From NCBI GenBank assembly GCA_949152475.1, contig OX424564.1:23434165-23498164 (forward strand): 64,000 nucleotides of DNA. The letters are read 5' to 3'. Origin of the DNA: Terebella lapidaria. Its lineage: Eukaryota; Annelida; Polychaeta; Terebellida; Terebellidae. Below, piece after piece: positions 3,537 to 46,699 of this stretch (position 1 is the first letter of the stretch; each line of letters starts with the position of its first letter). A program made the translations under genes and the position numbers. The notes under the pieces were generated by a model. The model was not told where the DNA came from and searched no databases. It worked only from the letters and a program-made list of their open reading frames with translations.

Positions 3537-4419
3537 TAGTCCTTCAAAAAATCTTCGTCACTGTAGAGCATGACAGTACCAGTTTCCGTAAAATGATGCT
3601 GAACAAGACCCTTGTCAATTTAACCCGTTTTCAGATCGCAATTGCCGACCTAGCATATATATACAAACAGCAAAACCTTTCTCTACTCCAAATCCCGGGA
3701 AACACCATCGGGAGTTTTGCTTTTCCCAAAACCAGACTTCCACCCGCGCAAAGTAAACCAGCACGTGGATCAGTGCTGCTGCACGTTGTCTCCCCAGGCA
3801 ACCATACATCTGGCGAAATGACGTCAACTAAAAAAAGTCCTCAATGTGTGAGAATTCCCCAAGTCTATTCCTGGCGTTAACACTATAGTCCCAATCACAT
3901 AACTCCCTTCAGTCACGTGTACAAATGCGCCATCCTGAAATTGTTTCACCTTCGTTTCCATCAAGTTTGTTCTGAGCAGAATAATTAGCATACAAACATG
4001 GATACAATGGGTGTATTACGGAAGCAATTGACACGACATTTGTTCGTGAGACATCTCAAAAGTAAACATATATCACACTCAAATCACAACCAAGGCCGCA
4101 ACCACGGGGTAGAACTCGCTACCTAACTTTGGTGGTGACCCCACTTCCTATTTTTTTTTTTCACTAGTGTCGCTTCGGGGCTCATGCAAAAACTCGCCCC
4201 AAATTTCAAGAAGTTTTGGACCAAGGTACAGGACTTATCTCTAATGCGATATTCTTGTTCTGAATGATTTTTTCGTCAGAATTAATTCAAACCTTTATCG
4301 GATCGTACCGTCAGTATTGCCATGCAAATATCCGACACGAAGTGTTTTTTTTAATTGTCTATTCCACGAACAGGCGAATCTTCGATGAGTCAATCTCGCA
4401 TACAATTCCGTAAACCTAG
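3537..4419. other. Intergenic, nothing recognised
   Basis: Short open frames occur but show no family motif, splice context or codon pattern that would support a gene. Confidence 0.4.
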
Positions 4420-4756
4420 CCCCCCCCGGAACTCTCTGTGTGACTGTTTTTAAAAGCTGGTGTCTATGTTGTCACACGAGAGTCCCACTTCATGAACATC
4501 CACCCCAATATCGCCCAACACTTTGACTCGATGTAGGTCTCACAGGATTCAAGAAGGCACTACTAGTGCAACGAAATTATATAATATATAATCCATTCTT
4601 AAATGTAGGAACCTTACTTTGGTGCATATGTCTATTCTATCACAGAAATCAACAATAAACCGCCACACTGAAAACTTCTCAAAATCGCAAATTTCTACCA
4701 GTCCAGGATGCCGCTTGCTCATTGGTCAAAAAACTTATTCAGTGCGTTGATTTCTA
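4420..4756 (+). repeat. Left terminal inverted repeat, outer part
   Basis: This is the reverse complement of about 19620-19940, with homopolymer length differences in the outer C/G tract. It is separated from the inner part of the same arm (5496-5700) by the inserted LINE fragment. Confidence 0.75.
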
Positions 4757-5495
4757 TGGAGCTCTAGATAGATAGATACTTTATTATCCACATGTGGAAA
4801 TTTGTTTTACAAGTGGAAGGCTCAAACACACCAGATACATGTATATACGAGAGTTATACATACACCAAAAATACACAAATATGAATAACAAATTGAACTA
4901 ACGTTTACATGTGGAATTATAAACCCGAATTGATGCAGGAATGAAGGAATTTAAACATCTACTGGTCCTGCATTTCAAAGAAAATAGTCGAGAACCAGAG
5001 CGTTGCTCATTATAGTAACAATTCAATGGGTGAGATACGTCCGACCTGATCAATTGAACTTTTTTATGGCAGAATTTGTTAAACAGATCTACCAGTGACA
5101 TACATTGACTGTTTGTCAACTTAGATGAGCGTTTTATGATTTGTGACAACTTGTGAAGATCATGTTGTCTGGCATTTCCAAAATACACCAAGATACAGAA
5201 GGTTATAAGACTCTCGATCACCGACTTGTAAAATAATTGTGTTATTGAAGGACCAACGTGGAATTCGTTCAACTTGCGAAGAAAATACATTCTTTGGTTG
5301 GTTTTGCTGAAGACACGTTTACAATGTGCTGACCATGTGAGCTTGTCATCAATCACCGTGCCGAGATATTTATACTCCTTTACAATGTCCACATCTGCAC
5401 TATCAATATTCACAGGTCTAACAATCTCGGATGGCTCTAAACGAGCCACCAGCAAGTGATACCGCGTGTACCATGATTTCGATTACCGAAAACCG
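4757..5495 (-). mobile_element. 5'-truncated Rex1/Babar-type LINE
   Basis: A minus-strand frame at 5455-4898 encodes about 185 aa of the C-terminal part of a non-LTR retrotransposon protein. It has EYKYLGTVIDDKLTW, a TNQRMYFLRKLNEF block and the Cys-poor tail typical of this region downstream of the reverse transcriptase. The 3' end (minus strand) runs through TGGATAATAAAGT into ATCTATCTATCT, the kind of short tandem-repeat tail known for Rex1/Babar and related LINEs. The endonuclease and polymerase core are missing, so this is a dead 5'-truncated copy. It interrupts the left arm of the surrounding inverted-repeat element, because the right arm runs uninterrupted through the equivalent point. 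Exact ends are uncertain by 10-20 bp. Confidence 0.8.
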
Positions 5496-5700
5496 CATGA
5501 TAATAAGATTTAAATATCGTCTTTGCATTCAGACATGAAAATAAAATTATACTCTACACAATACTGTCTTTTTATTATATATTAGTGTTCGTTTTACCAC
5601 CCAGTAATGTTGGCACAAAATCCGGATTCTGGTGAGGTTCCATATGTTTTGTCACCTCCATTTTGGCTGTTAGGCAAGAAAAAACACGTACATGCTTCTG
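5496..5700 (+). repeat. Left terminal inverted repeat, inner part
   Basis: This matches the reverse complement of about 19418-19610, including AGTATAATTTTATTTTCATG and the CCGGATTTTGTGCC block. The helicase reading frame begins about 10 bp inside it. Confidence 0.75.
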
Positions 5701-5712
5701 AATATGGATTAA

Positions 5713-8700
5713 CTAAAAGCATTAGATGCGGTGGTCGAAGACCTGAAGCTGCCCTTCACTTTGAAGGCTGAGCAGAAACAGGCCGTTATAAACATGTGTG
5801 AGAGGAAACACACATCTTGTGTGTTGCCCACTGGTTTTGGGAAGAGTGAAATTTTTGTTTTGCCGCCAATTGTGCACAAAAAAGTGAGTTCAAATAAAAA
5901 CATGTCAGATAGGTTCAAATATGATCTAGTTATGACCAATCAGACTTGATCAGACTCTCCAATGCGTGTAAGCCTACCTGCCATGCATGTCCCCTTGTGC
6001 TGGGTGCCGCATGCCTAAATTTGTTCGAGAGCTGTGATATCATTGGCCAACAGCACCACGGGCCGTGGCATCAGGACTGGTTCTACATGGGCGACATGTG
6101 CCATAGTTAAAGTGTCAATCCCACTGAGATCCCAGTAGACACCAGCACGGCAGCATGGGCCTGCCGTACTCTACCGTGTTGTATAGCATGTTGACACCCG
6201 CGTGTGCCATGGCCTCTGCCGCGGCCTGCCTGGATGAAGATTTTAATTTTAACATGCAGATCCCAGTTGCTGTCGTGATGCTGCTGTGCTGCTGAGTGCT
6301 GATGCCAGTGTCGTGTCAGCATCGTATTCGTGCCATATTTACGCCAGTAGCCTATCAAGTGAATATTTAGTCACAGTGATCAATTAAGGTAGCTATGTAT
6401 GGCACATTCCACCATTTCCTTGTAGATGCCGGTGATCAATTTCTTTAACCGGGATGAAATTCGCATCGGCGGTCGTCACCCCACAGTGGTTATTTGCCAG
6501 TCACACTGAGCTCCCGGTAGACCCTGGTAGACACCAGCACAACAGCCAGTGCCTGCGGGCTCTGCCGGGTTGGATACCGTCTTGATGCCCGGTGGTGCAA
6601 GAGTTGAGGTCTGCTGGGAATTCGCCTCTCCCGGGCCTTACTGTGTTGTTACTGTTTGCTGCCACGTGGCTGTGTTGACATCTGGGCATCCTGGCGTTTG
6701 TCAGGGTATACTCTCTGAGTGCTAAATCAGTATGGTACATCCCGGTAATTCCCAGCAGAGACGAGGTAGACCCTGTCAGCACCACGATTGACCATGACGA
6801 ATCCCAGTTGCCATGCCATGCTGACGCTGGGGTGTACCAGCCCCTACAGTGTTGATCCCATATTTACGCTGTGTTTCTGCCGGGGTCTGTCATGTTGGCA
6901 CAATGTTCGTGCCCTGTCTACGCCAGGGGGAGGGGGGGGGGGGGCATATCATGTAAACGTACTAATTTTTGCGGTGGATTTATTTTGCGGATTTCGCGGT
7001 AATATCAAAACCGCAAAATTAAATCCACCGCAAAAATTTGTCCATAGGGAGAACAAAGTGAAACGAAGATAAAACCGCAAAATTAAATCCACCGCAAAAC
7101 GTCTGAGGTACTGTCAGAAGCGCAAAATTAAATACCCGCAAAATTAAGCACGTTTACAGTATCATGTAAAGCCCCAGTCCCATATGAGGTTGATGCACTG
7201 CGGCCATACAGGGTGAAACACAGCAGCTTGGACTCCAAGATCGGGGTGCTCCATCATAGACTGGCATGGGGTATTCACACAAATCCTCCTGTTTAACCCC
7301 AGGGTGTATACTGAAGCTGACAATATCACAGTGCATCTCGGAAGATCAAGGTGGAGCCCAGGTGGAAGCCGGCACTGACACGCTGTCAGCACGGTGAATG
7401 CCGATGTATTCTGGAGGTCACAGTCTTACACCGGTCAATGCCGTGTTGACACCGTGTCCCATTGTGTCGGCCACTATGTTTCACTGCCATGAACTGTATG
7501 CTGCCGTCCACCGTGTGTCAACGTGTTGGGGCCAGTCGGTCTCCAGTGAAAATGCGACCTACCATGTATCACAAAGAATATCTCTGGGCCCGGTTCACCA
7601 AGGCGCCAACTGAAACTCATCAGTGCCGCTACGTTTCATCACATCGGCAACACCACGTTCACACGGTGCATCCCGGAAAAAAACTTCAGAACCGGGATTG
7701 GCTGAGGTTCACCTGCGGGTACACCATTTCCATCCCAGAGCATCAACGTCACATGCCGACTCATTCCAACATCAACATGGCGTTAGCACAGGGGCCGTTG
7801 AACCTCGGTGTTCCTGTGGGATGCACCTTGCTCCACCGGCACCTATATGGAACTTTACCTTAGTTATTCTGAACAAGGTAGCTACATCTAGGCAGTGTAT
7901 GGTAGATGCCGGTGATCGATTTGTCCTCTGCCGGGATCTACCAGAATGAAAATCGCATCGACGGTCGTCTCGACGAAAGACGGTTGCCTCCTTACATGAT
8001 ACGACTGGCATAAACACAGAATGAACACAGTGCCGACAGGACAGATCCCGGGACAAACATAACATGAACACGACACCTCGACAGGGTAGAGGCCAGTAGA
8101 GCCTGGCATTAACACAGCAGTAACCAGGATCTGCCATGGTCAATTTGTGGCGCGGCCGGGATCTACCTTGCCTCTGCCAGAATTTACCTGGATGAACCGT
8201 GTTGCAGACAACACACCTAGGTGAACACGGCAGCCACATGGCAGCAACACGGTAACAACATGAAAACAACATGGTAGGGCCTAGCAGAGAGCCCCTGTCA
8301 TGTCGTCTTGACAATTTTTATTTGTTAAACATGTTTACAAATAAATATCTTCATCCCAGCAGCGAAGGGCAGAGCCCGTTACACCATGGCACACCCAGTC
8401 AGCAACACGGTATCCAACGAGGCAGAGCCTGGCAGGCCCTAGTTGCCATGCTAGCGTCTACAGGGGACTACCGGGATCTCAATGGGACTGACACTTTACT
8501 ACTGGACTTAAAGCAGCTGCCTTCGATACCAGTCAATATTTGAAAACTATATTTCGTATTAAACATGCTAAACTAACTCAATGAAACATACTCACATCAA
8601 ATGTAATGAAAATAACCAGTCCTCGGGGAAATTTTGCTCATTTGAACAGGCGATTCTCGCGTAAATACATGAACTATCCTTCACACGCAGATGTAAACAA

Positions 8701-11091
8701 AGCAAATACTATAGTAAGTGCAAGATAGACTGACAATTCCACGAACATCATGGTATATCACTGATTATTTTCACAGAATTACACTATATATGCACATACG
8801 AACTGGAAAATGTACGCGATTTGGACTTTTAAGCGCGATTTGAGCATTTGTTTACATTCGGGTTTGATGGATACACTTCGTTGTTTATTTACAAAACCGG
8901 TACAAAATGGGCACTAAAACGGATGAAAAGACAACTTGGACGGACTATAATCGTCAAAATCATTGAGCACACCTTTTCTCATATTGCATTAAATGTGTTT
9001 AACAAAAAATTGGTTTTGAAAAAAATATTGCATACATTCGAAGGCAGCAGCTTTAATACTGCAATCGTCAAGACGACCGTTGATGCATATTTTATCCCGG
9101 TAGAGCTCGTGGTAGAGGCCAAATGAATCACTGTCGTCTACTGGGCACTGCCGGGATGTACCGTGTAACAACTGTGTTGAGTGTGACTAAGGCTTAAGTT
9201 AAACACGTATATTAGTGCAGGTTAGGCTTGGAACATGGTAATGGTTTTCGTTATTTATGAAAATCGTTCAAGTATTATGCAAATACAATTTTCAGTTACA
9301 TCCCGAGAAAAGGTTTATATCCTTGGTGATATCACCACTGCGCTCTCTTTCAAATGATCAAGTAACCAGATGGAGGAAGCGAGGAATATCATGTGCCACC
9401 CTCCTCCCAAGCAAAGAGATGAATGCTATGACCAAGCAGGGTAATGAAGGACGGCTATATTATCAATTGTTTTGTAGGCAAATCTGTAAGTAATTTTCTA
9501 TTTCTAGTAATAGGTGCGGTATTTGAATAAGGCTTATAAATATGGTAAATTTTTTTAATCTGGTGTTCCTTTAGGAATCTTGGACGGCGATTTCACCGTG
9601 TTGTTCGCGTCACCGGAATCCGTCCTTCTGCCTTCATTGTCAAAAATGCTTCGTGAGAGGAAGTCTGAAATATGTCTATTGGCTCTTGACGAAGTACACT
9701 GCATGACGGATGGGTAAGACAACTTATACTCATATGTAGCGTTGGGTGGTTCACTGTTTTATTCGTATACATATTATAAGTTTGTGCATGTAAAAGTAAT
9801 TCGACAAATGGTGATACAACTGGTTTAGTATGAAAGGTATATAGACATATTAGTGTAAATATAAATTGCAATGAATACATACTGAGGGCACACCAAATTG
9901 AAAAGTTGTTCATTGGATTTAGCGCATCCAAAATAATGTTCTGCAAGTATTACACAAAATGTGTGCGCTCTATCATTCTGGGTTCATAGTGCAAACTTGA
10001 TACATTGTATATATCCAATGTGGGGCTTGTGACATATGCATTTCATTTTCGTGAAAAGGGGCGATTCCTTTCGACCTCAGTACCAAAAGGTCGGTGGACT
10101 GAGGGCCGTCTTGCCCAGGGTGCCAATAGCTGCATTGACAGCAACCATCACACGTGACATGCAGCAGTCTGTGTTTGAGCTGCTCAAACTGACGGAAGAC
10201 CAGTTCCTTCACATATCAGTAGTACCGGACAGGTATATAAATACAAGTATCAATAAAGAACCATTGTAGAAAATGTATATACCACATGAATTTGTATAGT
10301 TATTCAATTCAATAATGACAAGATACAAATATTTTCAACATGTACTTGAACCGTCTTTGTCAATTATCAGACCCACAATATATGTGGAGGTAGACAACAG
10401 TCAGAAGCAGGACGTCTATGGGCTCCTTGATTGGTACCTGCAGAAGTTACTAGAGGAAGGTTTGTCAGCACCCAAGGCTGTTGTGTTTGGTCGGTAAGTA
10501 ACCAGATTACAAAAGCAGCAGAAATTTAAACATAATGATGGCTGCCAGTATGATCTGTTTATTTGAAGTTTCTAAATCATCTAGATCTTTTTGCAGATCT
10601 ATCGACATAGTCATGGAACTCTTTGGTCACGTGGCCAAGAGACTAGGCAGGAGTTCATATGTTGATGGTAAGGCCCTGGTAGAAGTGTTCCATGGGCACG
10701 TAGATCCTGTCCTAGAAGAACTTCCAAAATCAGGAAGTTCACAAGGGTATCCCCGATGTGTCATCACGACACTGGCATTTGGAATGGGGATTGATATACC
10801 CAATGTTGATTATGTTTTGCACTGGGGCCCCCAAACAACATATTGCTCTACTGGCGGGAAGTGGGACGCTGCGCAAGAAATGGCAGGATGGGGAGTGCAA
10901 TCATGTATTTGCCTCCATATTCTGTCAACAAATCCTATGTGCAAACAGATATGCCGCAAGTGATCAAGATGAAACACGGGTGCATTCGGAAGAATGTACT
11001 GAAGTTTCTGCAGGTCAAGGGTATCAGTGACGAGGATATTGATAAATGTTGCGGAGGTCACAGATGCTGTTCAAATTGCAAAAAATCGTGA
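5713..11091 (+). CDS. RecQ-like superfamily 2 DNA helicase, six exons, decaying
   Basis: Six exons with GT/AG borders: 5713-5883, 9296-9485, 9575-9713, 10059-10232, 10371-10493, 10597-11091, about 430 codons. Helicase motifs appear in order: I (LPTGFGKS), Ib (ISPLRSLSNDQV), II (LDEVHC), III (ALTATIT), V (TTLAFGMGIDIPNVDYV), VI (YWREVGRCARNGR), then a RecQ-type zinc cluster (CIRKNVLKFL ... CCGGHRCCSNC). The family unwinds DNA 3'-5' with ATP. There is no RQC or HRDC domain, so this is a compact type. Damage: an in-frame stop at 5710 with no good ATG before motif I, a TGA at the simplest exon 2/3 junction, and a one-base shift in the GGGGCCCCC run between motifs V and VI. The gene converges on the DUF6589 gene and starts at the left inverted repeat, so it probably served the element's mobility. 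A host RecQ pseudogene is less likely given these borders. Confidence 0.8.
5950..8530. repeat. GC-rich degenerate repeat field in helicase intron 1
   Basis: This 2.5-kb stretch is built of many imperfect copies of short phrases such as GCCGGGATCTACC, GTGTTGACACC and TAGATGCCGGTGATC on both strands. It is richer in G+C than its surroundings. Longer echoes exist: 6410-6480 resembles 7885-7975 directly, and the latter resembles 9063-9140 inverted. Open frames of 60-180 codons are by-products of the composition; none shows a domain. Confidence 0.5.
6952..7158. mobile_element. MITE with TGTAAACGTRCT ends
   Basis: The left end TGTAAACGTACTAAT and the reverse complement of the right end TGTAAACGTGCTTAAT form an inverted repeat that continues through blocks of AAAATTAAATCCACCGC / GCGGTGGATTT. 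The element is AT-rich against its GC-rich host intron. A TATCATG direct repeat overlaps both ends and may be part of the target duplication. No coding capacity. Confidence 0.7.
8531..9295. other. Rest of helicase intron 1
   Basis: AT-rich intronic DNA without a recognised gene. A segment near 9063-9140 is an inverted relative of 7885-7975. Confidence 0.4.
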
Positions 11092-11305
11092 AAAAATTTG
11101 TAATAAACACTAATCAAGATCTTCATCCATATTGATATGATGAATGTCTACATCCTGTCAGGAATAATTTTGCATAATTATATCACAATTGTCATCACAC
11201 TGCACTGAATCTATAGGGTTTTTTTTAAACTAGATACATCACATACATCTTTCACACGATTTTCACTCATACACCCACAAACACACCTATTTACACACGA
11301 ACAGA

Positions 11306-14300
11306 TCATTGATTTTCTCTCGTTGCTTCAATATGCTGTTCCCTCAACAGCATCCACCTTTCCATACCAGTGGATAACTTTTTGAGCGTCTGTCCCAGTT
11401 GGTAGGGGCTTTTCATGGAGGCATTGCGATGAAACCCTTCAAACGCAGAGTGTGCTCTTGGTGGACAGTAAGTGAACAAGGCCTCTTCTGTATTGGATCG
11501 AACAAGAGCCTCAACATCCTCCGATGAAACGTTGCATCGAGCTGCTATATGCTGTGACTCTGCTTGGGGTTCACCGTCCTACAAAGTAGACGCTTTAGAT
11601 CTGTTCTAAGGGTCCCAGCCATACGGCTGCAATGGGCTATCTGTTCTGGGGTGTACATGCCGTTTGACCTTTTGATCATCGCTGAAACCAGAGTAATCAC
11701 CAAATAAATCGTTATGGCATAAATAATTGAAGCATTGATTGACCAATTTCAAGTCATGAAAATTTAACTAGTACCTTTAAATGCTTTGTTCATGAATTCA
11801 TTTGTGAAATCTAGGCCAATGATACCCCCAGGGCGTCCGCTCATGTTGGCCACCCGGTTCCAGACAAACGCCTCCGTTTGATGGCCATTCAGGACTCCCC
11901 CAGCATCTGTAAATTTGCACATGCAGAAAACTACCCGAATGAAAAAGTATATATTTATTGGATAATGATGATTCTATATATATATAGATATTGCATAGAA
12001 ATATAAATAAAATTTACAAACTCGCAAGCAGTCTGTGTGCTATGCGGAGATACTTTGGGTGGCCGAAACGCCAGAAGTTGAGCACGTCCAGCCTCCAGTG
12101 TTGCATGATGACTGGGCCATCCCCAATGCGTACAGCATCACGGCGAACAATATGGTTGAGGCCCTGCCACAGGAGCTGCAGGCTATACTGCTGTACTCCA
12201 TCATCTGCTCCCTCCATCATCTCGCATCGCTCGCTGCAGTACCATACTCCTATACATTAATAATGTGTTTAAGATGAATCTCCAGAAATTGGAATTTAAT
12301 GTACTGTGTCAGTATAATTTTTACTGTAAATTTATTATTTCATGCAGAAAGATGGTCGCTCTACTATCCAGAATATGTAGAATGGAATATCATTTCAGAA
12401 TTACCAGACGTGTCTTCTTTTGGAGAAAGACATGCACGGTGGAACCACCTTTGCCTAGGCATTCTTCCTTGCGGTGGCACTGGATCATCCGTCCTCCTCT
12501 CCGCTCCCCACACACACAGTAGATGTGGGTCTCGTTATCCCTACACTGGGCACAAAACCAGTCACCACTTGGTGCCTCTGACAGTGGTGGGTCGACGCAA
12601 GAGATGTGGTACCATCCATTGGAACAAGTACGAGCGGAGCACTGCACCATTTCGTCTTCCTTGTCTGCAAATTTAAAGGGCCACTGAATGGGATTCGGCT
12701 TTTGGGGGATTTCCAATATTTTTCTCCCGACGCTTCTATTTATAGAACAAAACGTCAGATGACGTTTTTGGCCTGGGATCTCTGCCGACCGACCTGGGCT
12801 GATCTGAGCATTGGCTCGGTACAGATCATGGCTCAAAAACGTAATCTGACCTTTTGTTCTATAAATAGAAGCGTCGGGAGAAAAATATTGGAAATCCCCC
12901 AAAAGCCGAATCCCATACAGTGGCCCTTTAATATGTGATACAAAATATATAGGAGTTTCTGTCACCTCGTTTACATACTAGTATAGCGTAGGAGAATGCC
13001 ATTAACTCTGAATAGTGATATTTCAGTTCTGTACTCACAGCCTTAATATGATATATTATTATAAATAAAGGTGTTGAATGGGCTTTCCAGATTTATGATC
13101 AAGTGCTATCCATGTTTATTCATAACTATGAAATTTTACACTCATAAAATTTACTGAAATTTATTGATGGTATTGGAATCTACACTATTCCATTACACTA
13201 AATGCTACACTGCATTTGAATGTTACGTACCTGTTCTACAGCTGCAGAACGCAAGTGTGTCTGAAGCATTATAGATTGATACCTACATTCATACCACTGA
13301 GTCGGTGTCACTGCTGGCGGACGTTAAATCTGTCCCCGAGGATACCATCAACTCAGTAGCCTTCTGGCTATTGATTAGGTACTTATGTACTTGTCATATA
13401 TCTGTTCCATGGGGTTTGTTTCGGATTTCTAAAAAAATTTCATAGGTTGTTGGGCAGTTGTATACTAATTCCATCAGGTGTACAGTAGAAACAACTACAT
13501 TTAACACACTGTCTGCCCCTAATGACGCCAGTGTGTCTTTGGATAAACTATTTGGTCGGGCTTTGTTTCTATTGCAAAATGTTGTATTTTACGTTTGTTA
13601 TTGGCATCACCAAAATCTACTGTATTTGTGGTCATAGATTGATACCTACATTCATACCACTGAGTCGGTGTCACTGCTGGCGGACGTTAAATCTGTCCCC
13701 GAGGATACCATCAACTCAGTAGCCTTCTGGCTATTGATTAGGTACTTATGTACTTGTCATATATCTGTTCCATGGGGTTTGTTTCGGATTTCTTAAAAAA
13801 ATTTCATAGGTTGTTGGGCAGTTGTATACTAATTCCATCAGGTGTACAGTAGAAACAACTACATTTAACACACTGTCTGCCCCTAATGACACCAGTGTGT
13901 CTTTGGATAAACTATTTGGTCGGGCTTTGTTTCTATTGCAAAATGTTGTATTTTACGTTTGTTATTGGCATCACCAAAATCTACTGTATTTGTGGTTATA
14001 GATTGATACCTACATCCTGTCTGTCAATGGCATCAGCACTCTCATAGGCATGCTTTGCTGTGGCAAGCTCCTCAAAAGGAGTCTCTTGCAAAACCCTATC
14101 CACGATCCGTTGGCAGACATTCATGAGCCAGCGTTCCTGTGCTTTGTGGGAAGATGGTAAGTCAGGGGGTGTGTGCTCCAGACTGTCTAGTCCGTTGGCA
14201 GACATTCATGAGCCAGCGTTCCTGTGCTTTGTGGGAAGATGGTAAGTCAGGGGGTGTGTGCTCCAGACTGTCTAGTTTGAGCACTCCCATGTACAGTAGA

Positions 14301-17300
14301 AGGGTCATCCCCTTTGTGGTCAACTAAAGGAACAATGTAGATATACAAATTAAGGGATAAAAACTGGTTTGCCATGACGTTTGTCACTTTTGTGACGATT
14401 CAGTTGTGTCTTACTTGATTTCCATATGTTTTTGAGCTGGAATATCGCTTATTTTGATTTCGAAGTGAATGAAGCTGCAAAGTTTTTAACCTGGGAAAGG
14501 CCCACAGTTTCGGTCCGGAAAGAAAAGGATCCATGAAATAGCTATGACAACGCACGTGCAGAAGCGCATATTACGTAAACAAAACAACGACGTCATGGCA
14601 ACCAGCAGCCGGAGACCGGCTTTGGCTGCTCAAACATTGCCATATCGTGCATTTGGATGTTCATGCCATGTTATAATGAATATTAGTGTGCCCAAAGGAA
14701 ACATGCTTATTTGATTGTGATGGGAATATGATATATCCTGCACTTGTGAAATGTTACATCCATATTGATGGAACGTTTGAAAAGTACGGTGTTACTACAC
14801 ATAGCAAACCTCCAAGAGATCCCACACGTGTTGCAAATGTGTCATGACGGGAAGAGTCGCGTTCGTTCTGTTGAAGAAAAGTCGTATTTGGGCCAATGTT
14901 CCAACATCTGCCTGGCTACCAGGGTCACACAGAGACTTCATGGTGTCCTGCAAACGATATATGTCTCAGTATTATCCATATACATGTATGTTATGAAATT
15001 GCACTGGAACATAGATAAATACAATGTAGATTCTGATGCTCAAACCAGGAATTACATCCATTCCTATGAATTTACAAGCATACAACACCAGATCCCAGAT
15101 AAACATACAACAACACCAGATGACTGGTTAAATCACAGGGCAAATCAATTTATAAATTATTCCTGTATCCATCTGCAAAATATTGTATATTGTGTATTCA
15201 CCTCTAAGAGTAGGCCTTCTTTTCGAAACTCCTGAGCACTTTCGGTGTAGCAGCCTAGATCATGGGATGATGCTCTGAACGTTGTGCGTGCCTTCTTCGC
15301 TTTGATTATTCCCTCGATTGTGAGCGCATCGCCATTGCAGGCAGTCTGCAGTGGAGCATCATTGACGATGGGGACATACTGTCGCAGGTGATCCAGGACC
15401 TGCAGCACACCTCCAGTATCCGATGGGTTTACATCCAAAACTCCAAGGTTACACACTACCGACTTCTTGGTCATCTCTTCCCAATATTTGTGTCTGGCCA
15501 GTCGGGGCTTGAGGTGTTTCAGGGCTGGCACAAATTCCACCATTATGTTCCAAACGGTAAGACAAAGACGTTGTCTGTGCTCCTGAAGATCCTGGGGGCT
15601 TGGGAGGAATGCTTCAGCTGGCAGCTCGGTCGGACGTACAGGAAGTGCTGGAGTCACATCTTTAGGTATAACCCTATCTTTGCAGGCTAACATCAGAGTG
15701 AAGATGTGGAATGATTTCTTGCGCTAAAGTGTGCGATGTTTCTGTGAAGCCTTGAACTGCACGTTTTCGAACGTTAGCGAAAACCCTGCTATCGTTGAGG
15801 CATCTACGCTTTCTTCCACAAAAAGACGACGTGCGGGATTCTTCGAAACTTCCAGTTGAAATAGAGACGTATAAAATATAACTTTAAATAAATTGGAAAA
15901 CGGGCACCATATAGGTGAAAGTCATTTTACAGTGAAACATAGGGTACATTCGGAGCTTTAATGCCAAAAATAGTATACAATTTTTTCTTTCTCTGCTTTC
16001 CAATCTGTGACCTTTCTGTCATGATACTTTGTGACGACATCGATGACACAACGTGCAGCATTTGCTCCACAGCTTATGGACAGATAGTTCATGGCGTAGA
16101 ACACTGCTTGGCTGACGCCCTAACATTGAAGGTGCAAACCTATGGACGACTGTGTGAATGGAGAAGCATTCCGGTGATTACGCCGATTCGTGCATTGTAC
16201 TTAGCGTCGGTATCTCTTTCATTTTGGATCCTGCAAGTAAAATATTAGTGCACTTCAGTTACAGATAGAGTGTCTCTTGCGATAATATCAAAACATGACA
16301 TGAAAATGATATTGATAAAAGCATAGGATTGTTGTATGATATTTTTATGCCCAAGGTCCAAATTATTTCTGTAACAAATAAGGAAAGTACATCCCATCCA
16401 TTCGTCTGTGGCCCTAAACGCGTTCTCATTAGGTAATGAACAGGGAGCAATTGCTAGCAAATCAAGGAGAAAATCACAGACTGGACGCAATAATACAAAA
16501 TACAGGGGTTTTACTATCTTTTGAACTTGCATCAAGCTGAATATACCCTTAAGCCCGTTGTGAAAGTGGGCACCCGAGATTGTCTGGTGAACATCCGTGC
16601 GCCCACGATTCTTGGATGAAATGGAGTACATCTGAAATATTTGGACGTGACCACGAAAAGGTTACTGAGACTTGGCCTGTATAAACCAACTGTTCACAGC
16701 GACCAGTATTGACAGTCGGTGGCATAGGTTTCACATCTTTATTGCTCACGAAGACATGAAAATCTGTGACACGCACTGTGTCCACAGAAGCATGTGACAA
16801 TCATGCTCATGTCACTTTTCTCCAGCCATTTACTACACAGAATTCACAGCCTCGCTCTTCAAATCCACATATATTGTGCAGCTCAAATACCAGGAAAAAT
16901 CTACAAAACACACAAAAGTAAGTAATGCCCAAGGGAAATATGGCAGATGTCGGGCATGCTATACAGGACTCTGGGCCGGCCATGATGCTTGTTACCACAT
17001 TCCAAGTGCCGGACACATTATACGTGACTGAGTATGCCTCTAGGCTAACTTCCATGTGTACCTGATACTTGCGGCATAAACGGTGCCCGATATTTGCAAG
17101 CGAGAGCGAGGGTGTGACGTCATGGCCAATGATACAGTATAGTGGAGTGAGAAAAGAACATTGCGTCTCCAAGGAGATGCACGAGCTTTGAATGTGAAGC
17201 AGCCAAAACAGGTAGATATATGGAGCACGATAGCGGCCTAAATTCCTATCGCAATCTTTGGACAAAAACAACACATAAACACCTTCTTACAATGTTAGTG

Positions 17301-19305
17301 GCCAACATGATCCGCCCTGGCCCAAAAGCTCCCGAAACACGACTGAAGCGGAACCAAAAGGAAGCAAGGTGAGCGGTGTCCAGAAATTGCGACGCAACAA
17401 GGCAAGAGCTTGAGGGTCTGTTTTGGGAGAATGGGGCACGAAGACAGGGCTACCAGACTACATTGTAACACTCCTAGAGTTGTGAATAAACTCTAATGAT
17501 AAGCAAGCTAAAATTTTGGACGAGATGTTGCAGAAAGGATGATGACCTGGGAAGGTCATCCGCCGAAAGAGAGGGCATGCCGGATGTTTGGAATCTAATT
17601 AATCTTTGAATTTAGGCATTTTCATCGAAAAGTATTAATAGCTCTAAAAAGGATGCTGGATGCCCTCGCCAACTGGCGTCATGGACCTGCGAGGATCCGG
17701 GCAGGGCGGTGCCGCAGGGAGTGATGACAGCACCGCCACCATGTCCAGACGGTGACGAGGCTAGTATCCAGCCTTCATCCATTTTCTCGTCATCCTTCTT
17801 CAGAGTAGACAATGACCTCCACTCCCTGAGGGGAGGCGTTAGAGCAAATTCTCCATGGGGAGGAGGCGGCAACCCTGGCGGAGGTCGCTGGCGCTTGGTG
17901 GGTGACCCCTGTGATGTTGGCCCTGGTGGGGCTACTGTGGCGAACATCTTGACCCAATCCTGGATGCACTCCTTGCCGCTGGTCCGCTCGCCCCATTTTC
18001 TGTCCAAAATAGGATACAGCGCCAGCTCCAGAGCTGCATTTAAGCATCATGTTTTGACTTCTCCAAGGGCGGACGACATAGGGTCATCCATGCCCTCTCG
18101 CAGGCGAGTCTGAGCAGCCTCAGCATCGCGTAGGCGACACCGAAGTTTTCCTAAGCCCGGAGTATCTGCACTTCCGCTTCCATCTCAGCAGAGAAGGAAC
18201 TTTGCTGCAACTTGGCAGCCTTAGCATTGGCCATTCCTTTGCGGAAAGCCTGCTGCTTGAGGTCAGTCGCCAGAATCTGGTAGCTAATATGGCTACGCCG
18301 GGTACCTTCTATCAGTCCCTTGTTGTGTGCTAGGGTGAACGTGACATGGGAGGCCTCTGCTCGGTGCCTTCTAGAGTAGCTTTTCCATCTCTGCTAGGTA
18401 CTCCATGGCGCGAATGAGCCTGACTTGCCAGGGTTGATCCCAGGGGCACTCATACCGTGCAGGTCACTAATGACCCGAGGTACCGGCAGATTGGCCAGCG
18501 CTGGATCAGACGGCACACGCTCCTGACAATGTCATTGATGATCTACCACCTGGCCTACGCACTCGCGAAAAGTGTCATAGGCCCAAGCAGTGTCGAAGCA
18601 GTACTGTCTGAGAATCTTCTCGATCTTTTCGGATGGAGGACTGGCAGAATACAACCGTCCTGCAAATACTGTACACGATCATTACAACAGAAGCAAGTAT
18701 TACCGTTTGCTTCCTTTTCGTCCTTTCAACACTTGAGAAGACAGCTTCTTCTTTGATGACATCACAGCCTCCACAACTCTGCCAAATAATGGCATCTTCT
18801 CTTCCACCTCGGTCATAACATTTGCCCAGTTGAAGGCAACCAGGTTTTCCTCTTTGACATCGTTAGTCAGGGTAGTTATTCGCTTGCTGGCATTTTTGCC
18901 AGTGACCCTTGCAAATTCTGTCTTGAGTTCCGAGAACGTCACCGCATTAAACGCATCCCTGGCAGATTCGCTGGAGGCAATCAAGAGCCTGAAGCAAGCC
19001 ACGTACTTGCTATTCTGTAGGCAAGTACAGGCCCTTTCCCGGAAACCTATCTCAGATGTGCTAGGCTGACATGTTAGAGTATCCGTGGGGACTGGAGCTG
19101 TGGGTGGAGTGTTTTTGTAATCGGCAGTTTTATTTTTAAAACCAGGTAACGGGGATTCTGCTTGGCGCTTCAAATTGTCCCTATGTGATACAAAGTTATC
19201 TGCACTGTCTGAAGCTACCCTTGACTCTGGCGTGCCAAACGACTTCCTCGTATTGGTTTTTTTGTTCAGGTATGTTTTGTGTTTTGAAATGCACACACAA
19301 GACAA
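11306..19305 (-). CDS. DUF6589-type protein with PHD zinc fingers, candidate transposase, decaying
   Basis: Exons recognised on the minus strand: 19305-18704 (N-terminal block with FNWANVMTEVEEKMPLFGRV), 15686-15202 (PAEAFLPSPQDL ... CNGDALTIEGI), 14947-14810 (GTLAQIRLFFNRTNA), 14323-14014 (HKAQERWLMNVCQRIVDRVL), 12664-12365 (two PHD fingers: CSARTCSNGWYHISC ... WFCAQC, then YCVCGERRGGRMIQC), 12233-12022 (GDGPVIMQHWRLDVLNF), 11906-11775 (GRPGGIIGLDFTNEFMNKAF) and 11681-11306. The order fits the uncharacterised DUF6589 family; exons between 15.7 and 18.7 kb were not found. Damage: a one-base shift in the second PHD finger before WFHRAC, an 85-bp tandem duplication in the 14.0-14.3-kb exon, and a frame change in the last exon. 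PHD fingers usually bind histone tails. The invariant acids (GD, GDG, LD..NE) suggest an RNase H-like nuclease, which is inference only. Confidence 0.72.
12677..12927. mobile_element. TTAA-flanked foldback MITE
   Basis: A 251-bp element lies between TTAA copies at 12673-12676 and 12928-12931. Its ends (AGGGCCACTGAATGGGATTC and the inverted AGGGCCACTGTATGGGATTC) open arms of about 110 bp that are nearly perfect inverted repeats, leaving a short spacer. TTAA targeting is typical of piggyBac and Kolobok elements. It sits in the intron just upstream of the PHD exon, only nine bases from the 3' splice site. Confidence 0.88.
13270..14014 (-). repeat. ~364-bp satellite, two units plus a partial third
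   Basis: Two almost identical units start at about 13270 and 13634, and a short third start runs to the exon edge at 14014. The same unit occurs inverted at 45720-46685 and 55976-56700. Landmarks are CTAATTCCATCAGGTGTACA, TGGGCAGTTGTATAC and CCCCGAGGATACCATCAACT. The array abuts the 14.0-kb exon of the DUF6589 gene. Confidence 0.92.
14107..14276. repeat. 85-bp tandem duplication inside an exon
   Basis: The block beginning CCGTTGGCAGACATTCATGA at 14107 is repeated at 14192 and continues identically to CAGACTGTCTAGT. It duplicates coding sequence of the DUF6589-type exon by a length that is not a multiple of three, so it breaks that frame. Confidence 0.9.
15690..17600. other. Interior of the large element without recognised exons
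   Basis: The middle exons of the DUF6589-type gene should lie here, but I could not match any frame to the family with confidence. Minus-strand frames at 17274-16807 and 16800-16549 are open but contain no familiar motif. Confidence 0.35.
17612..18640 (-). pseudogene. Broken coding-like stretch of unknown identity
   Basis: The minus strand between about 18640 and 17612 reads as protein-like sequence in pieces: an alanine/glutamine-rich helical part (DLKQQAFRKGMANAKAAKLQ) and a proline-rich part (KRQRPPPGLPPPPHGEF), interrupted by several stops. The stretch is richer in G+C than its neighbours. I do not recognise the family. It could be a captured host fragment or a further gene of the surrounding element; it lies in the gap between two DUF6589-type exons on the same strand. 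Confidence 0.35.
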
Positions 19306-19417
19306 GCAGTGTATGGTGACGACAGTTTACTTAGTTTGACCCTGTTATACCCTTTCGATGTTTTGGTAAACTGTGTGTTGCATGATGCACGCACTCGATC
19401 CATTTTCAATCAAAATC

Positions 19418-19940
19418 CACGTGTTTTGCCTTGCCTGGCAATCAAACTGGAGGTGACTAAAAATATGGAACCCTGCACCTGAATCCGGATTTTGTGCCAA
19501 CATTACTGAATGGTAAAACAAACTCTTTTATATAATAAAAAGACTGTTGTGTAGAGTATAATTTTATTTTCATGTCTAAATGCAAAAACGGTATTTAAAT
19601 TTTATTATCATGTAGTTTTCGCACTGAATATGTTTTTGGACCAATGAGCAAGCGGCATCCTGGGCTGACAATTTTTCGGATGTTTGAGAAGTTTTCAGTG
19701 TGGCGGTTTATTGTTGATTTCTGTGATGGAATAGACATATGCACCAAAGTAAGGTTCCTACATTTAAAAATGGATTATATTTTATATAATTTCGTTGCAC
19801 TTGTAGTGTCTACTTGAATTCTGTGAGACCTACATCGAGTCAAAGTGTTGGGCGATATTGGGGTGGATGTTCATGAAGTGGCAACTGTCAATGTCAGCTT
19901 GTTAAAACGTCCACACAGAGTTCCGGGGGGGGGGGGGGGG
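19418..19940 (-). repeat. Right terminal inverted repeat
   Basis: An uninterrupted arm matching the split left arm. It ends in a run of about 18 G. The DUF6589-type reading frame begins about 110 bp inside it. Confidence 0.78.
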
Positions 19941-20919
19941 CTACTAGTGGGGCAGGAAATGCTCACTCTCTCCGGAACACCTGATTTCACCTCCTAATGG
20001 CCATTTTGTGGGTTCATGAGTTTCCCTGTCATTTTTGTTTTCTCACACTTCGTATGCCTGATATGACTTTCTGTCCCCGGACTATGATATTGGATAACGG
20101 ACCCAGTTTTGTTTGCTCGGAATACTTAATACTGTGTATTGATTCCACGTCTATCCAAATTGTCACAAAATATAAATTAAAATCAATATTGAATCATGAC
20201 ACAAATTAGTGGGTTTGATGCGACCCGCTTTCTCTTTCTGGACAGAGACCTATGTGTACAAGCACACTTGTTAAATACCAGACAGTCAGATATTCTGTTC
20301 TTTTTTAGCAGCACCACAGGGGCGTATCTAGAAATCTCAGAACGAAGCGAGGCACAGCGCAGCGAATCCCAAGCGGCGGGGGTCTGTGGCCCACTCAAGG
20401 GCCCCAGAAGCCAAACGCTTTTTGGCGTTTGCTGGTGCATTCTAGCCCTATTTTGGGTACACGTTACCCTTAACAACTCAACAGTTATGACTACAAGTAC
20501 AACCAGTTTTACAATTTAATATTTAGACACTAGTATGCATTCAGATGTGATTTGACATAAACCATAAAATATGCATGTGAAAATTCAATTCATTTTCGTA
20601 GATGAATTATCAAAGGGCGAGTATAAATTTTATGTGAATTTCTTTCAACATAAGTCAGAGAACACAATAAGTTGTTCCTTATGTATACAGATACTGACAT
20701 GCATATTTATTTTCAATTACTTGGCAATAATGGTGGCACTCCTTTTTAGTAATACATAACATACACGTGTATGGTCCACTATAAACATGTTAAAACGTGC
20801 TTTTGTATTTTCCGCCAATTGAGTATCCGAAATACATGAAACTCCGCAAGTTCGGCGGGCTTTTTATATGGCAGGAGCGGCCGGCAACTATTATAAATCT
20901 CCGCAAGAAAGTTTTGATT

Positions 20920-35875: not shown

Positions 35876-37183
35876 TCAACAGATATTCCCACGAAGAGAT
35901 GGCCCTCCGGGTTCGCAGCCATCCGTCCTCGCGATGCGCCGCCACTTGTCCCAGCCTGCTAGTCTAGCCACACGTCCTTCGGGTTCACCTGCAGCATCGA
36001 CCCCATCACACCAGGGTCGTTTACCCATCAGAGACCCCCCTGTCTGGTCGAACGTCGGCTTCAATGGTTGCAGTCGACTCCCCAGCCAACTCATCACCTG
36101 ACACATGACCCATAGCCGCCACAAGCTGAACAGTCCGACATCCTGCTCCATCGAAGGCTGGGGCTCTTGAGCCCTGTCTGGTGCCCGAGTCACCTCTTGG
36201 CAGCCATGGACGTCTGTGCTAGCCCCTCCATCAGACCAGTGATTGTGAGTCACTGCTCGTCCAGCTGCAGGCTCTTGCTCATCACCGGTTGGTCTCAGTT
36301 GGCTTTCACTGTCATCAGGTCTGGCTCCTTTACCTTTCAAGCACTCCGGAGTTACTGCATGATCAGCGGGTGGCACTGTTCGGCCGTCAGCATCATCCAT
36401 GCCTTCTCCAAGGCAGTGTTGCGAAGACTTTGCCTGTCCATCAGCATTCTCCAAAATGCTTCTGCTTCCGTGCTGGAGCCGTCTCCGCGTAGTCACGATA
36501 AGCCCATCGCCTGTTTCTGCCAGTTTGCAGCCTTTTGTGCACACCAAGTCTGCTCGGCCTTGGCTCACAAATGTCACTCCCTCTGACCGTCGAGTTGCAG
36601 TGTGGCTCCTGTCAATCCTAGGGTCAGTGACATCACACTCCAGAACAATGCACGACTCCTCTCCAGCACATTCAGTGCTAATATCACCGCCGACTGCATT
36701 GCCCCAACAAGCAGCCTCCAGATCCAGCTCATCAACCGGCGCTGTCTCCAACAGCCCGTCGGAAACCTTGCTGGCATCTGCCGAGGCGCCCATGTCAGCA
36801 TCAGTCACTGGAGTCTCCATTGTCGCTCCCTCTGTGCCCGTCCAGGCACACTCTAGGTCTCCACTGGTTCCACCCTCAGCCTTCCCAGAGCCACAAGCAC
36901 CACACATGGAAGCCACCGCTGTCCCAAACAGCTCCTTCCCAGCACCTATCCTGGGGTCCCTACTGACTGCCATGCCCTGACACGCAACTCCCAGACCCAG
37001 CCCCTCGACCGGCACTGTCTCCAACAGCCCTAGGTCGGTATCCCTGCTGGCATCTGCAGAAGTGCCCATGTTGGCATCAGTCATCCTGGACTTAACTGCT
37101 TCTCCTGCGTGGTCGTTGTTGCTCCTGGGAAGCTGGATTGACTCCCCAGTCTCTTGAGACCTCTCATTGATCTGGCCTGTCAC
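35876..37183 (-). CDS. Second open frame of the LTR fossil, unknown function
   Basis: A 435-codon frame directly follows gag, overlapping it by a few bases in another frame. It contains two copies of an acidic repeat (MTDANMGTSADAS and VTDADMGASADAS, each followed by a GLLETxPV motif). No protease DTG, reverse transcriptase or integrase motif is visible. It may be a gag extension or a replaced pol region. It belongs to the fossil LTR element, not the host. Confidence 0.5.
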   Translation of the reverse strand: MTGQINERSQETGESIQLPRSNNDHAGEAVKSRMTDANMGTSADASRDTDLGLLETVPVEGLGLGVACQGMAVSRDPRIGAGKELFGTAVASMCGACGSGKAEGGTSGDLECAWTGTEGATMETPVTDADMGASADASKVSDGLLETAPVDELDLEAACWGNAVGGDISTECAGEESCIVLECDVTDPRIDRSHTATRRSEGVTFVSQGRADLVCTKGCKLAETGDGLIVTTRRRLQHGSRSILENADGQAKSSQHCLGEGMDDADGRTVPPADHAVTPECLKGKGARPDDSESQLRPTGDEQEPAAGRAVTHNHWSDGGASTDVHGCQEVTRAPDRAQEPQPSMEQDVGLFSLWRLWVMCQVMSWLGSRLQPLKPTFDQTGGSLMGKRPWCDGVDAAGEPEGRVARLAGWDKWRRIARTDGCEPGGPSLRGNIC

Positions 37184-38739
37184 TGCTGATTGGGCTGCCC
37201 CATGGCCACTGGAGCGAGCCCTTGCCCATTTGGGTGGTCAGCAGATTTTGCCACCTGAATCCTGCCACCAACACGCGCTGTCGGGCAGTCACGCACCAAA
37301 TGGCCCTCCAGACCACAGCCATAGCAAGTTTTCCTGGCACCAAATTGTCTGTCCAGGTGGTGGTCATCTGATGACCATCCCTCAGACTGCCGTTGTCGCA
37401 GAGCTTCCAGGATTTCCTGCAAGACACCCATCATGCCCTGCTCCCCTTGAGTCTTGGCCTCCTCTTTGTGGCTCCTCTGTTCACCCCTCGACAGCCTCCG
37501 AGCACGTTCGCCATGTTGCTTATCAGAGGTCTCCTGTACTGTACGAGCATTCCTCCTTGACTGAAGGCCATCCCGGCACCAGGTCTCCATGTAGCTGACC
37601 ACCTCATAGACAGCCTCATCTATGTCCTTGGGGTCTTTTACATATTCGACCTGCCAGCTCGCTCTCTCATCCTGGAGCCCATCCAAGAACCTCCTCAATA
37701 GGTCCTCCTGGCGTGTCTGGCGATCTCTGGAAGGGTGGGCCTTGTCATACAGGTATTTGAGTTTGGCAGCATACTCCTCTACAGGTTCAGATGGCTTCTG
37801 AAAGCGGTTACTAAACCTAGCAGCAAATAACTTTGCTGTTTCAACCACCCTGAACCTGAGAGCCAGTTCACTCACGAGGGACTCATAGTCCATACGTGTT
37901 TCCCTGGACAGCTGCCCAAACACAAACTCCCCTGCCACACCTTCCAATTTCGACAACAGCTCCACATGTCGCTCCTCCTCGTTCCAGCCCAGCTCCTCAG
38001 TCACGTCCTGGAACCTATTGAACCAGACGGTCCATCGTTCCTTCCCGGTAAAACTGGTGAAACGAGGCCTTCTGGCAAACTGATGGACGGACCCACCACT
38101 CCTGTGTTGTTGGGGGTGTGTATTGCTGTCGCTCCTACCAGGCTGATCACCAGAACAGACTCCACTTGGGGGCCACTCTCTCTGGCACCTTCCCATAGCA
38201 ACAGGACCTCGGCCTACATTTCCCTCAACAATCTCCGCATTCACAGACCCTTGGTGGGACATATGCTTGACAGCCCGCTGCCTTGCATAGGGGTCACCAC
38301 CAAGATCCCTGCCACAATCTGCCAGATATGGCCTCTGCCTGGGAGCCATCTTTGGGCGCTTCCGCCGTGGTACTGCAGGCCTACCACCAGTTACACCACG
38401 CATGCCACACACCTCACTCTCCAGCACATCACCATAGAATGTTGCTCCTGCAGCATAGCCCGTCTGTCCATAGGTGCCACTGCCACTCACTGGTGGTACT
38501 GAATCCCCCATCTCTGGCAACAGGGGAGGCTGTTCAGGCACAGTCCCAGTGCCATGACCCCGTACATAGGAGGCAGGGCTAGCTGCATGGTCGCTCCACC
38601 ATCCATGTGGCTCCACTGTGTGTGCTGGTACCTTAGTCGCTCCGTCTCTCCATCTCCTGGAGCTGGTATGTGGAACACTGGCGACAAACAAGTTGTCCAA
38701 CACATATTGTGGCTCCCATGTACCATGGCGAGCCATCAC
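37180..38739 (-). CDS. Gag-like protein of the gypsy-type LTR fossil
   Basis: A 519-codon frame on the minus strand just downstream of the 5' LTR and primer-binding-type block. It has a gypsy-type capsid region (FTGKERWTVWFNRFQDVTEE ... EELLSKL-type helices ... FSNRFQKPSEPVEEYAAKL) and one CCHC zinc knuckle (CYGCGLEGHLVRDC) near the C-terminus, the usual order for Ty3/gypsy Gag. Its 5' part is repeated at 39755-40508 by the tandem duplication. Confidence 0.75.
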   Translation of the reverse strand: MMARHGTWEPQYVLDNLFVASVPHTSSRRWRDGATKVPAHTVEPHGWWSDHAASPASYVRGHGTGTVPEQPPLLPEMGDSVPPVSGSGTYGQTGYAAGATFYGDVLESEVCGMRGVTGGRPAVPRRKRPKMAPRQRPYLADCGRDLGGDPYARQRAVKHMSHQGSVNAEIVEGNVGRGPVAMGRCQREWPPSGVCSGDQPGRSDSNTHPQQHRSGGSVHQFARRPRFTSFTGKERWTVWFNRFQDVTEELGWNEEERHVELLSKLEGVAGEFVFGQLSRETRMDYESLVSELALRFRVVETAKLFAARFSNRFQKPSEPVEEYAAKLKYLYDKAHPSRDRQTRQEDLLRRFLDGLQDERASWQVEYVKDPKDIDEAVYEVVSYMETWCRDGLQSRRNARTVQETSDKQHGERARRLSRGEQRSHKEEAKTQGEQGMMGVLQEILEALRQRQSEGWSSDDHHLDRQFGARKTCYGCGLEGHLVRDCPTARVGGRIQVAKSADHPNGQGLAPVAMGQPNQQ

Positions 38740-39756
38740 CTATGCCTGATGCAAGACAGGAAACCCATAACGTGGAATCGCATCACAGGATGCTATTACC
38801 AATGAGGCAAAAGCATCCCACTTCTGACACCAGAATTGTAACGGTTAACCGAGCGAGCGTCTGTCTTCTCCTTCAAATCTTGCATCAGAGCCGCAGCGAG
38901 ATGATGACTCATACACACAACACCATGTACAGTCTTACATGCTTTATTTACACCATACATAAAATATATAAAGTTTCCAAATGACACAAAATATGTATAT
39001 AATCCAATATAACTATTTACCAGGCCTAACTCGACCTAAAACTGCCTAAATGTGGCCCAGAAAATATATGTGTGTCCAAAATATGTGTTCCGCCTAACAT
39101 TCTGTGTCCAATATCCTATATGTCATCCGCCTAACTTGGCCTAAAATATTTGTGTCCAAAATATTATCCGCCTATGCTGGCCTAAAATAACCCGAATGTT
39201 TGTGACTCCCATGTATATAACTGTAGCTCCAAGATGTATCTCCAGGCAATATGTAGCTCCAATTCAGTAAGTGTTGCTCCAGATCATATGTGTAGCTCCT
39301 ATAGCCCTGCTGGTCGATCTCCTCTGCCAGGTGTTGCTCCTTGCCCCGCTGGGCTGCAGACTGAAAATTTCCCCTGGGAGCGCTGCTTAAATAGACTGGC
39401 TCCAGAACCAGGTCACGGTAACCCAGATCGGGTTCAGGGGTCAATTATGCAATATTCTGGCTCAGATTGAGGCCAGAATTCCCAGAATGCCAGGCGTTAA
39501 TAGCCTCTCCACTTCCGGTTTAGCCATGCTAGAATTGCTCACTGTAAAATCTAAATAACTAAAGAAATATGCCCTAACATCCCCTAAATTATGTTTCCCC
39601 AATGAATTCCCACACCCTGCCCCGTAAATAAATGTATAGGTTGAGATAATTATGCCTCCCAGGCATTAAAATCACTCTCGAAGCGGCCGGCCAAAATGTA
39701 AACAAATCGACCGTCGCGCCCCCTGGCGAATGCAATAAAACCGCTATGCAAGGCAG
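37988..39756 (-). repeat. 1,769-bp tandem duplication of gag 5' part plus LTR, first unit
   Basis: This unit and the one starting at 39757 are almost identical at a constant offset of 1,769 bp. The junction near 39745 joins the LTR interior to gag sequence through a few extra bases. Confidence 0.9.
38837..39744 (-). repeat. Partial LTR at the duplication junction
   Basis: Matches the 5' LTR from its gag-side end as far as the AATAAAACCGC block, then stops where the duplication joins gag. Confidence 0.88.
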
Positions 39757-40605
39757 CCCAGCTCCTCAGTCACGTCCTGGAACCTATTGAACCAGACGGT
39801 CCATCGTTCCTTCCCGGTAAAACTGGTGAAACGAGGCCTTCTGGCAAACTGATGGACGGACCCACCACTCCTGTGTTGTTGGGGGTGTGTATTGCTGTCG
39901 CTCCTACCAGGCCGATCACCAGAACAGACTCCACTTGGGGGCCACTCTCTCTGGCACCTTCCCATAGCAACAGGACCTCGGCCTACATTTCCCTCAACAA
40001 TCTCCGCATTCACAGACCCTTGGTGGGACATATGCTTGACAGCCCGCTGCCTTGCATAGGGGTCACCACCAAGATCCCTGCCACAATCTGCCAGATATGG
40101 CCTCTGCCTGGGAGCCATCTTTGGGCGCTTCCGCCGTGGTACTGCAGGCCTACCACCAGTTACACCACGCATGCCACACACCTCACTCTCCAGCACATCA
40201 CCATAGAATGTTGCTCCTGCAGCATAGCCCGTCTGTCCATAGGTGCCACTGCCACTCACTGGTGGTACTGAATCCCCCATCTCTGGCAACAGGGGAGGCT
40301 GTTCAGGCACAGTCCCAGTGCCATGACCCCGTACATAGGAGGCAGGGCTAGCTGCATGGTCGCTCCACCATCCATGTGGCTCCACTGTGTGTGCTGGTAC
40401 CTTAGTCGCTCCGTCTCTCCATCTCCTGGAGCTGGTATGTGGAACACTGGCGACAAACAAGTTGTCCAACACATATTGTGGCTCCCATGTACCATGGCGA
40501 GCCATCACCTATGCCTGATGCAAGACAGGAAACCCATAACGTGGAATCGCATCACAGGATGCTATTACCAATGAGGCAAAAGCATCCCACTTCTGACACC
40601 AGAAT

Positions 40606-46685: not shown

Positions 46686-46699
46686 TGGAATAGATTATA

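What the first reader, a model, noticed from the sequence alone, without database searches (positions are those of the whole stretch)
4420..19940. Large inverted-repeat element pairing a RecQ-like helicase with a DUF6589/PHD protein
Inverted repeats of about 0.5 kb enclose two converging split genes, each starting within about 110 bp of a repeat. Seen: the repeats, helicase motifs, PHD cysteines and DUF6589-like blocks. Known: RecQ proteins are SF2 helicases, and DUF6589 is an uncharacterised eukaryotic domain. Inferred: this is a DNA transposon type in which DUF6589 is the transposase, the helicase assists mobility and the PHD fingers steer chromatin targeting. This is the best candidate for an undescribed system in the window.
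Basis: partly seen in the sequence, partly recalled or inferred. Interest (0 to 1): 0.9.

Follow-up and report, generated by a model that had tools for sequence, protein, structure and literature searches.

The report
Decayed AcademH-like RecQ transposon
This is an old, broken DNA transposon whose two mirror-image ends each lead straight into a gene, one for a RecQ-type DNA-unwinding enzyme and one for a probable transposase with chromatin-reading fingers; the kind (a transposon with a helicase, called AcademH) appears to be known already, but the details could help give a function to an uncharacterised protein family.

Summary
Window 4420-19940 is one element with terminal inverted repeats (TIRs) of about 535-550 nt, 86-88% identical. 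They run from an outer C-run to the start codons of two convergent split genes, both ATGGAT. The plus-strand gene is a RecQ helicase with six frame-consistent exons. The minus-strand gene matches Pfam DUF6589 at profile positions 5-249 and 262-392, with two PHD fingers between; all 19 solved-structure hits of the second finger are ING-family proteins. The copy is dead: stop at helicase codon 3, frameshifts in both genes, an 85-bp duplication, nested inserts.

Most likely it is an AcademH-type DNA transposon, described by Kojima in 2020 as Academ transposons encoding a helicase in animals and fungi (seen second-hand). That paper is not held, I had no Academ profile, and no 9-10 bp target duplication was found, so membership is probable, not proven. 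Possibly new: DUF6589 as its transposase, PHD fingers nested inside it, and TIRs ending at both start codons. No host genome is held, so copy number and recurrence are untested.

The parts
4420..4746 (+). Left TIR, outer part, beginning with a C-run (4420-4427)
   Evidence: 87.8% to 19932-19620
4747..5486 (-). Nested insert in the left TIR; its 194-aa ORF (4901-5482) looks like the C-terminal end of a non-LTR retrotransposon ORF (my reading of the letters)
   Evidence: absent from the right arm; Pfam ALKBH8_N 3.9e-9 on the ORF, a model that I recall as matching the tails of such ORFs
5487..5709 (+). Left TIR, inner part, running up to and including ATGGAT, the helicase start
   Evidence: (86.3% to 19621-19419)
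5704..11091 (+). RecQ helicase gene, six exons: 5704-5883, 9296-9440, 9575-9713, 10059-10232, 10371-10493, 10597-11091; TAA at codon 3, one frameshift in exon 6 at about 10820-10835
   Evidence: splice sites, phases, stop; RecQ
5884..9295 (+). Helicase intron 1, 3.4 kb, with a G+C-rich stretch (about 6000-8500) that carries diverged inverted repeats; probably a nested insert
   Evidence: no Pfam match for the two ORFs tested there (7450-7860 and 7775-8317)
11306..19403 (-). DUF6589-PHD gene (probable transposase); coding pieces identified: 19403-, 19326-18703 (no Pfam match), 16230-16143, 15696-15202, 14947-about 14813, 14323-about 14016, 12664-12405, 12250-about 12020, 11906-11775, 11681-11306; not a complete gene model
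   Evidence: frames, splice sites; PF20231
12405..12664 (-). Exon with PHD finger 1 and most of PHD finger 2 (frame changes inside finger 2, which ends in the next exon, 12250-)
   Evidence: PF00628, two stretches; finger 2; finger 1; frames
12673..12931 (.). Fold-back insert, 116-nt arms, TTAA at both edges, 8 nt from the start of the PHD exon
13271..14015 (.). Two copies of a 364-bp repeat in what I read as an intron of the DUF6589 gene, abutting the end of the exon before it; relatives at 45.7 and 56.0 kb
14106..14276 (-). 85-bp exact tandem duplication inside a DUF6589 exon (shifts the frame)
19398..19940 (-). Right TIR, from the G-run 19925-19940 (C-run on the minus strand) to ATGGAT at 19403-19398, the start of the DUF6589 gene

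Best explanation
An old, inactivated copy of an AcademH-type DNA transposon. Long TIRs carry both the transposase-binding ends and the 5' leaders (probably promoters) of two convergent genes. The DUF6589 protein is the transposase; its two PHD fingers, placed inside that domain, probably bind histone tails (the second most likely methylated H3K4, as ING proteins do) and bias where the element inserts. The RecQ helicase probably unwinds DNA at the cut ends or the target during strand transfer and gap repair. Shown: TIRs, gene order, RecQ and DUF6589-PHD identity, TIRs reaching both start codons, decay. Inferred: DUF6589 being the catalytic transposase, promoter function of the TIRs, histone reading, the helicase's role, AcademH membership.
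For: TIRs (E 1.5e-111) aligned up to both start codons; RecQ by sequence, with the C-terminal cysteines aligning to WRN; six frame-consistent exons; DUF6589 over nearly the whole profile, interrupted by two PHD fingers; 19 of 19 PDB hits of finger 2 at E up to 0.01 are ING, YNG or png2 proteins, and the Y, M and W that I recall as part of the ING methyl-lysine cage are in the aligned sequence. A passage of PMC10045372 says that AcademH encodes a helicase and makes 9 or 10 bp duplications; Academ is listed among superfamilies with a DDD/E transposase (PMC9587614).
Against: No target duplication: for ends at 4408-4431 and 19925-19964, none of 5-12 bp exact or 8-12 bp with one mismatch; with the ends within a few bases of the C/G-run edges and two mismatches allowed for 8-11 bp, none either; only CTAG (needs three extra bases on the right) and 3-bp matches. 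Curated bivalve Academ elements average 5565 bp (PMC10294476), this element spans 15.5 kb with its inserts. No Academ profile or sequence was at hand, so DUF6589 = Academ transposase is my inference. AlphaFold gave no usable fold. Only one copy seen.
Confidence: 0.68

Rival explanations
1. A helicase-bearing DNA transposon of a separate superfamily built on DUF6589, unrelated to Academ.
For: No link between DUF6589 and Academ turned up in the held papers: 0 hold the word DUF6589 and the one paper holding PF20231 is about optics. No 9-10 bp duplication.
Against: A transposon plus helicase in animals and fungi is what AcademH is reported to be. Absence of the word says little, as the Kojima paper is not held.
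Confidence: 0.2
2. A Kolobok element with an accessory RecQ (KolobokH, or Kolobok-1_CCri, which has RecQ on the complementary strand).
For: KolobokH and Kolobok-1_CCri encode RecQ helicases; the latter on the opposite strand, as here (PMC9587614 passages).
Against: KolobokH is reported only from fungi, with RecQ downstream of the transposase domain; no TTAA at the element ends, which I recall as the Kolobok target duplication; the transposase candidate matches only DUF6589 and PHD in Pfam.
Confidence: 0.06
3. Two host genes that happen to lie between inverted copies of one dispersed repeat.
For: Only one copy was seen; the window is rich in repeats.
Against: The repeat copies end at the start codons of the two genes, with the same ATGGAT context; the arms match nothing else in the window at E up to 1e-6.
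Confidence: 0.06

Closest known systems
AcademH (Academ superfamily; Kojima 2020, Mob DNA 11:15; not held, known here from its reference and from passages in PMC10045372 and PMC10799480)
   Same: DNA transposon encoding a helicase, in animals and fungi; superfamily with a DDD/E transposase
   Different: 9 or 10 bp target duplications reported, none found here; whether published members have a DUF6589 match, PHD fingers or TIRs reaching the start codons I could not check
KolobokH / Kolobok-1_CCri (PMC9587614 passages)
   Same: RecQ helicase as accessory protein, in Kolobok-1_CCri on the complementary strand
   Different: Kolobok transposase; KolobokH fungal only; here DUF6589 and no TTAA at the ends
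Maize MuDR (recalled, no call)
   Same: Long TIRs that hold the promoters of two convergent genes, transposase and accessory protein
   Different: MULE transposase and an unrelated accessory protein; an analogy of layout, not kinship
RAG2 PHD finger (recalled, no call)
   Same: A PHD finger that reads H3K4me3 steers a transposase-derived recombinase
   Different: In RAG it is on the partner protein; here inside the transposase-like domain, with binding untested

Membership tests
AcademH | Helicase gene inside the element | tested here: met
   RecQ gene between the TIRs
AcademH | Transposase of the Academ superfamily | not testable with these tools
   Protein matches PF20231; no Academ sequence or profile at hand, Kojima 2020 not held
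AcademH | 9 or 10 bp target-site duplication | tested here: inconclusive
   None found at one mismatch (9.5% of 2000 random placements gave one by chance) or two mismatches (238 of 3000 random placements gave one). One decayed copy with ragged C-run ends; at 13% divergence I estimate by hand that about two in three 9-bp duplications would still show at one mismatch, so the result counts mildly against membership
AcademH | Terminal inverted repeats | tested here: met
RecQ helicase | SF2 core of RecQ type and zinc-binding tail | tested here: met
   WRN, RecQ, RECQ5, BLM, RECQ1, RECQ4 matched; cysteine tail aligned to WRN
Kolobok | TTAA target duplication (recalled) | tested here: not met
   flanks read CTAG on the left and CTACTAG on the right
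DDE transposase | RNase H-like core with three acidic residues | tested here: inconclusive
   single-exon AlphaFold model unusable, mean pLDDT 36.3

The most novel reading that the evidence does not exclude
DUF6589, a eukaryotic family of unknown function, is a DDE transposase family; in this lineage tandem PHD fingers with an ING-type H3K4me3 reader are inserted inside the catalytic domain and steer insertion to active promoters, a RecQ partner governs the cut or repair step, and both proteins are expressed from TIRs that act as twin promoters ending at their start codons.
Probability: 0.3. Interest if true: 0.62.

Novelty: new member of a known kind. Interest (0 to 1): 0.38.

Why it matters
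What a helicase does in a cut-and-paste transposon is open, to my knowledge. If DUF6589 is the transposase here, a Pfam family without function gains one, and the nested ING-type PHD finger gives a directly testable case of a transposase that reads chromatin.

Tried and rejected
Viral contigs: the DUF6589 C-terminal part gave 7 pattern matches, 0 confirmed; a helicase stretch gave 9 confirmed loci of 15, of which 0 of 9 records hold DUF6589; the 14 control genomes also gave none, so this is uninformative. AlphaFold on the largest DUF6589 exon gave mean pLDDT 36.3 and was not taken to a fold search. Of nine protein pieces scanned in Pfam, six had no match. A PDB search with the joined DUF6589-PHD protein gave 95 hits at E up to 1; the 60 shown align to the PHD region. 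Of ten papers I read passages only: PMC10045372, PMC10799480, PMC12210899, PMC8290104, PMC9587614, PMC11075540, PMC9970103, PMC10294476, PMC9004415, PMC8905726. Rfam and tRNA scans of the window were empty. 'Two host genes between dispersed repeats' was set aside because the repeat copies stop at the start codons.

Full report
Observation. The element is real and at the stated place. Arms 4420-4746 plus 5487-5689 match 19419-19932 in reverse at 86-88%. An alignment made with the 740-nt insert of the left arm left out is continuous from the C-run to ATGGAT in both arms; these ATGs are 5704 (+) and 19403 (-). At E up to 1e-6 the arms have no other match in the window.

Helicase. Six exons, 5704-11091, with GT-AG introns join in frame. 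The joined protein matches DEAD (8.2e-20) and Helicase_C (6e-8) in Pfam and WRN, bacterial RecQ, RECQ5, BLM, RECQ1 and RECQ4 in the PDB (58 distinct sequences at E up to 0.001, the weaker ones RNA helicases); the WRN alignment extends to the C-terminal cysteines. The gene is broken by TAA at codon 3 and a frameshift near 10820-10835.

Partner gene. On the minus strand, from 19403 to about 11306, exon pieces match DUF6589: one open piece alone 2.9e-7, joined pieces 1.5e-20 over profile 5-395, N-terminal half 1.1e-10 on 5-249, C-terminal half 1.3e-9 on 262-392. Between the halves lie two PHD fingers (PF00628, 1.2e-13, two stretches). The first starts at profile position 9 of 47 in the exon that I could read, so its first zinc ligands are not seen; it resembles CHD4, PHF21A, ING and other fingers (60 of 87 hits shown). 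The second gives 19 hits at E up to 0.01, all ING, YNG or png2. Six of nine pieces scanned have no Pfam match, among them the 208-aa piece 19326-18703. The gene has frame changes inside PHD finger 2 and near its 3' end, and an exact 85-bp tandem duplication in an exon. The two genes end about 215 bp apart, tail to tail.

Nested inserts. 4747-5486 is in the left TIR. A fold-back, 12673-12931 with TTAA at both edges, lies 8 nt from the start of the PHD exon. A 364-bp repeat pair abuts an exon end, with relatives at 45.7 and 56.0 kb at about 89-92%. A G+C-rich stretch lies in helicase intron 1. Together with the arm divergence these say that the copy is old.

Target duplication. None of 5-12 bp exact or 8-12 bp with one mismatch was found around the ends; by chance a 9-10 bp match at one mismatch appeared in 9.5% of 2000 random placements of the same size. 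With the ends within a few bases of the C/G-run edges and two mismatches allowed for 8-11 bp, none was found; 238 of 3000 random placements gave a 9-10 bp match at two mismatches. CTAG lies directly left of the element and, after three further bases, on the right; this could be chance.

What it works like. Two convergent genes that start at the inner ends of long TIRs resemble maize MuDR in layout (recalled). A transposon with an accessory helicase is the reported plan of AcademH; the same passage ties the longer duplications of AcademH, against AcademX, to helicase against nuclease (PMC10045372). I infer that DUF6589 is the transposase because it is the only other recognised protein of the element and because, as I recall, DUF6589 proteins occur in animals and fungi. 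I infer histone reading from the ING likeness of finger 2; that ING fingers bind H3K4me3, and by which residues, is recalled.

Membership. AcademH is the best filing: helicase and TIRs met, the duplication inconclusive and mildly against, the transposase superfamily not testable. Curated bivalve Academ elements average 5565 bp (PMC10294476), against 15.5 kb here with inserts; whether those include AcademH I did not learn, and I did not establish that the host is a mollusc. Kolobok with RecQ fits less well: no TTAA at the ends and no Kolobok match.

Novelty. A helicase-bearing DNA transposon is known, so this is not an undescribed system. I cannot say whether the PHD insertion, the TIRs reaching both start codons or the DUF6589 link are in print. 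In the held library DUF6589 gave 0 papers, PF20231 one optics paper, and Academ with PHD finger and DNA transposon 20 papers, 15 of them listed, none evidently about Academ elements by title, though that search also matched words such as 'academic'. The key paper is outside the library.

Noticed in passing
52480-55641 and 60890-64000: Two long open frames (1054 and at least 1037 aa) of a non-LTR retrotransposon, nearly identical by eye, about 8.4 kb apart, each preceded by arrays of a 58-bp tandem repeat; the first matches RVT_1 and Exo_endo_phos. They look like tandem copies or a recent segmental duplication.
   Followed up: partly
13271-14015, 45725-46686, 55974-56699: A 364-bp repeat in two or more tandem copies occurs at three places in the window, one beside an exon of the DUF6589 gene, about 90% alike.
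   Followed up: partly
12673-12931: Fold-back element with TTAA at both edges and ends AGGGCCACTG, right next to a splice acceptor; probably a small non-autonomous element of a TTAA-targeting family.
   Followed up: partly
37183-38739 and 39747-40508, minus strand: Retrotransposon gag protein (Retrotrans_gag, zinc knuckle, weak PNMA) in a G+C-rich stretch; by eye a nearly identical N-terminal copy begins 1 kb further on.
   Followed up: partly
47178-48512, 50739-51589, 58223-60000: Long arrays of a 58-bp repeat with higher-order periods such as 104, 147 and 174 bp.
   Followed up: no
6000-8500: G+C-rich stretch in helicase intron 1 with diverged inverted repeats (6484-6598 against 8389-8504), possibly a nested element of its own.
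   Followed up: no
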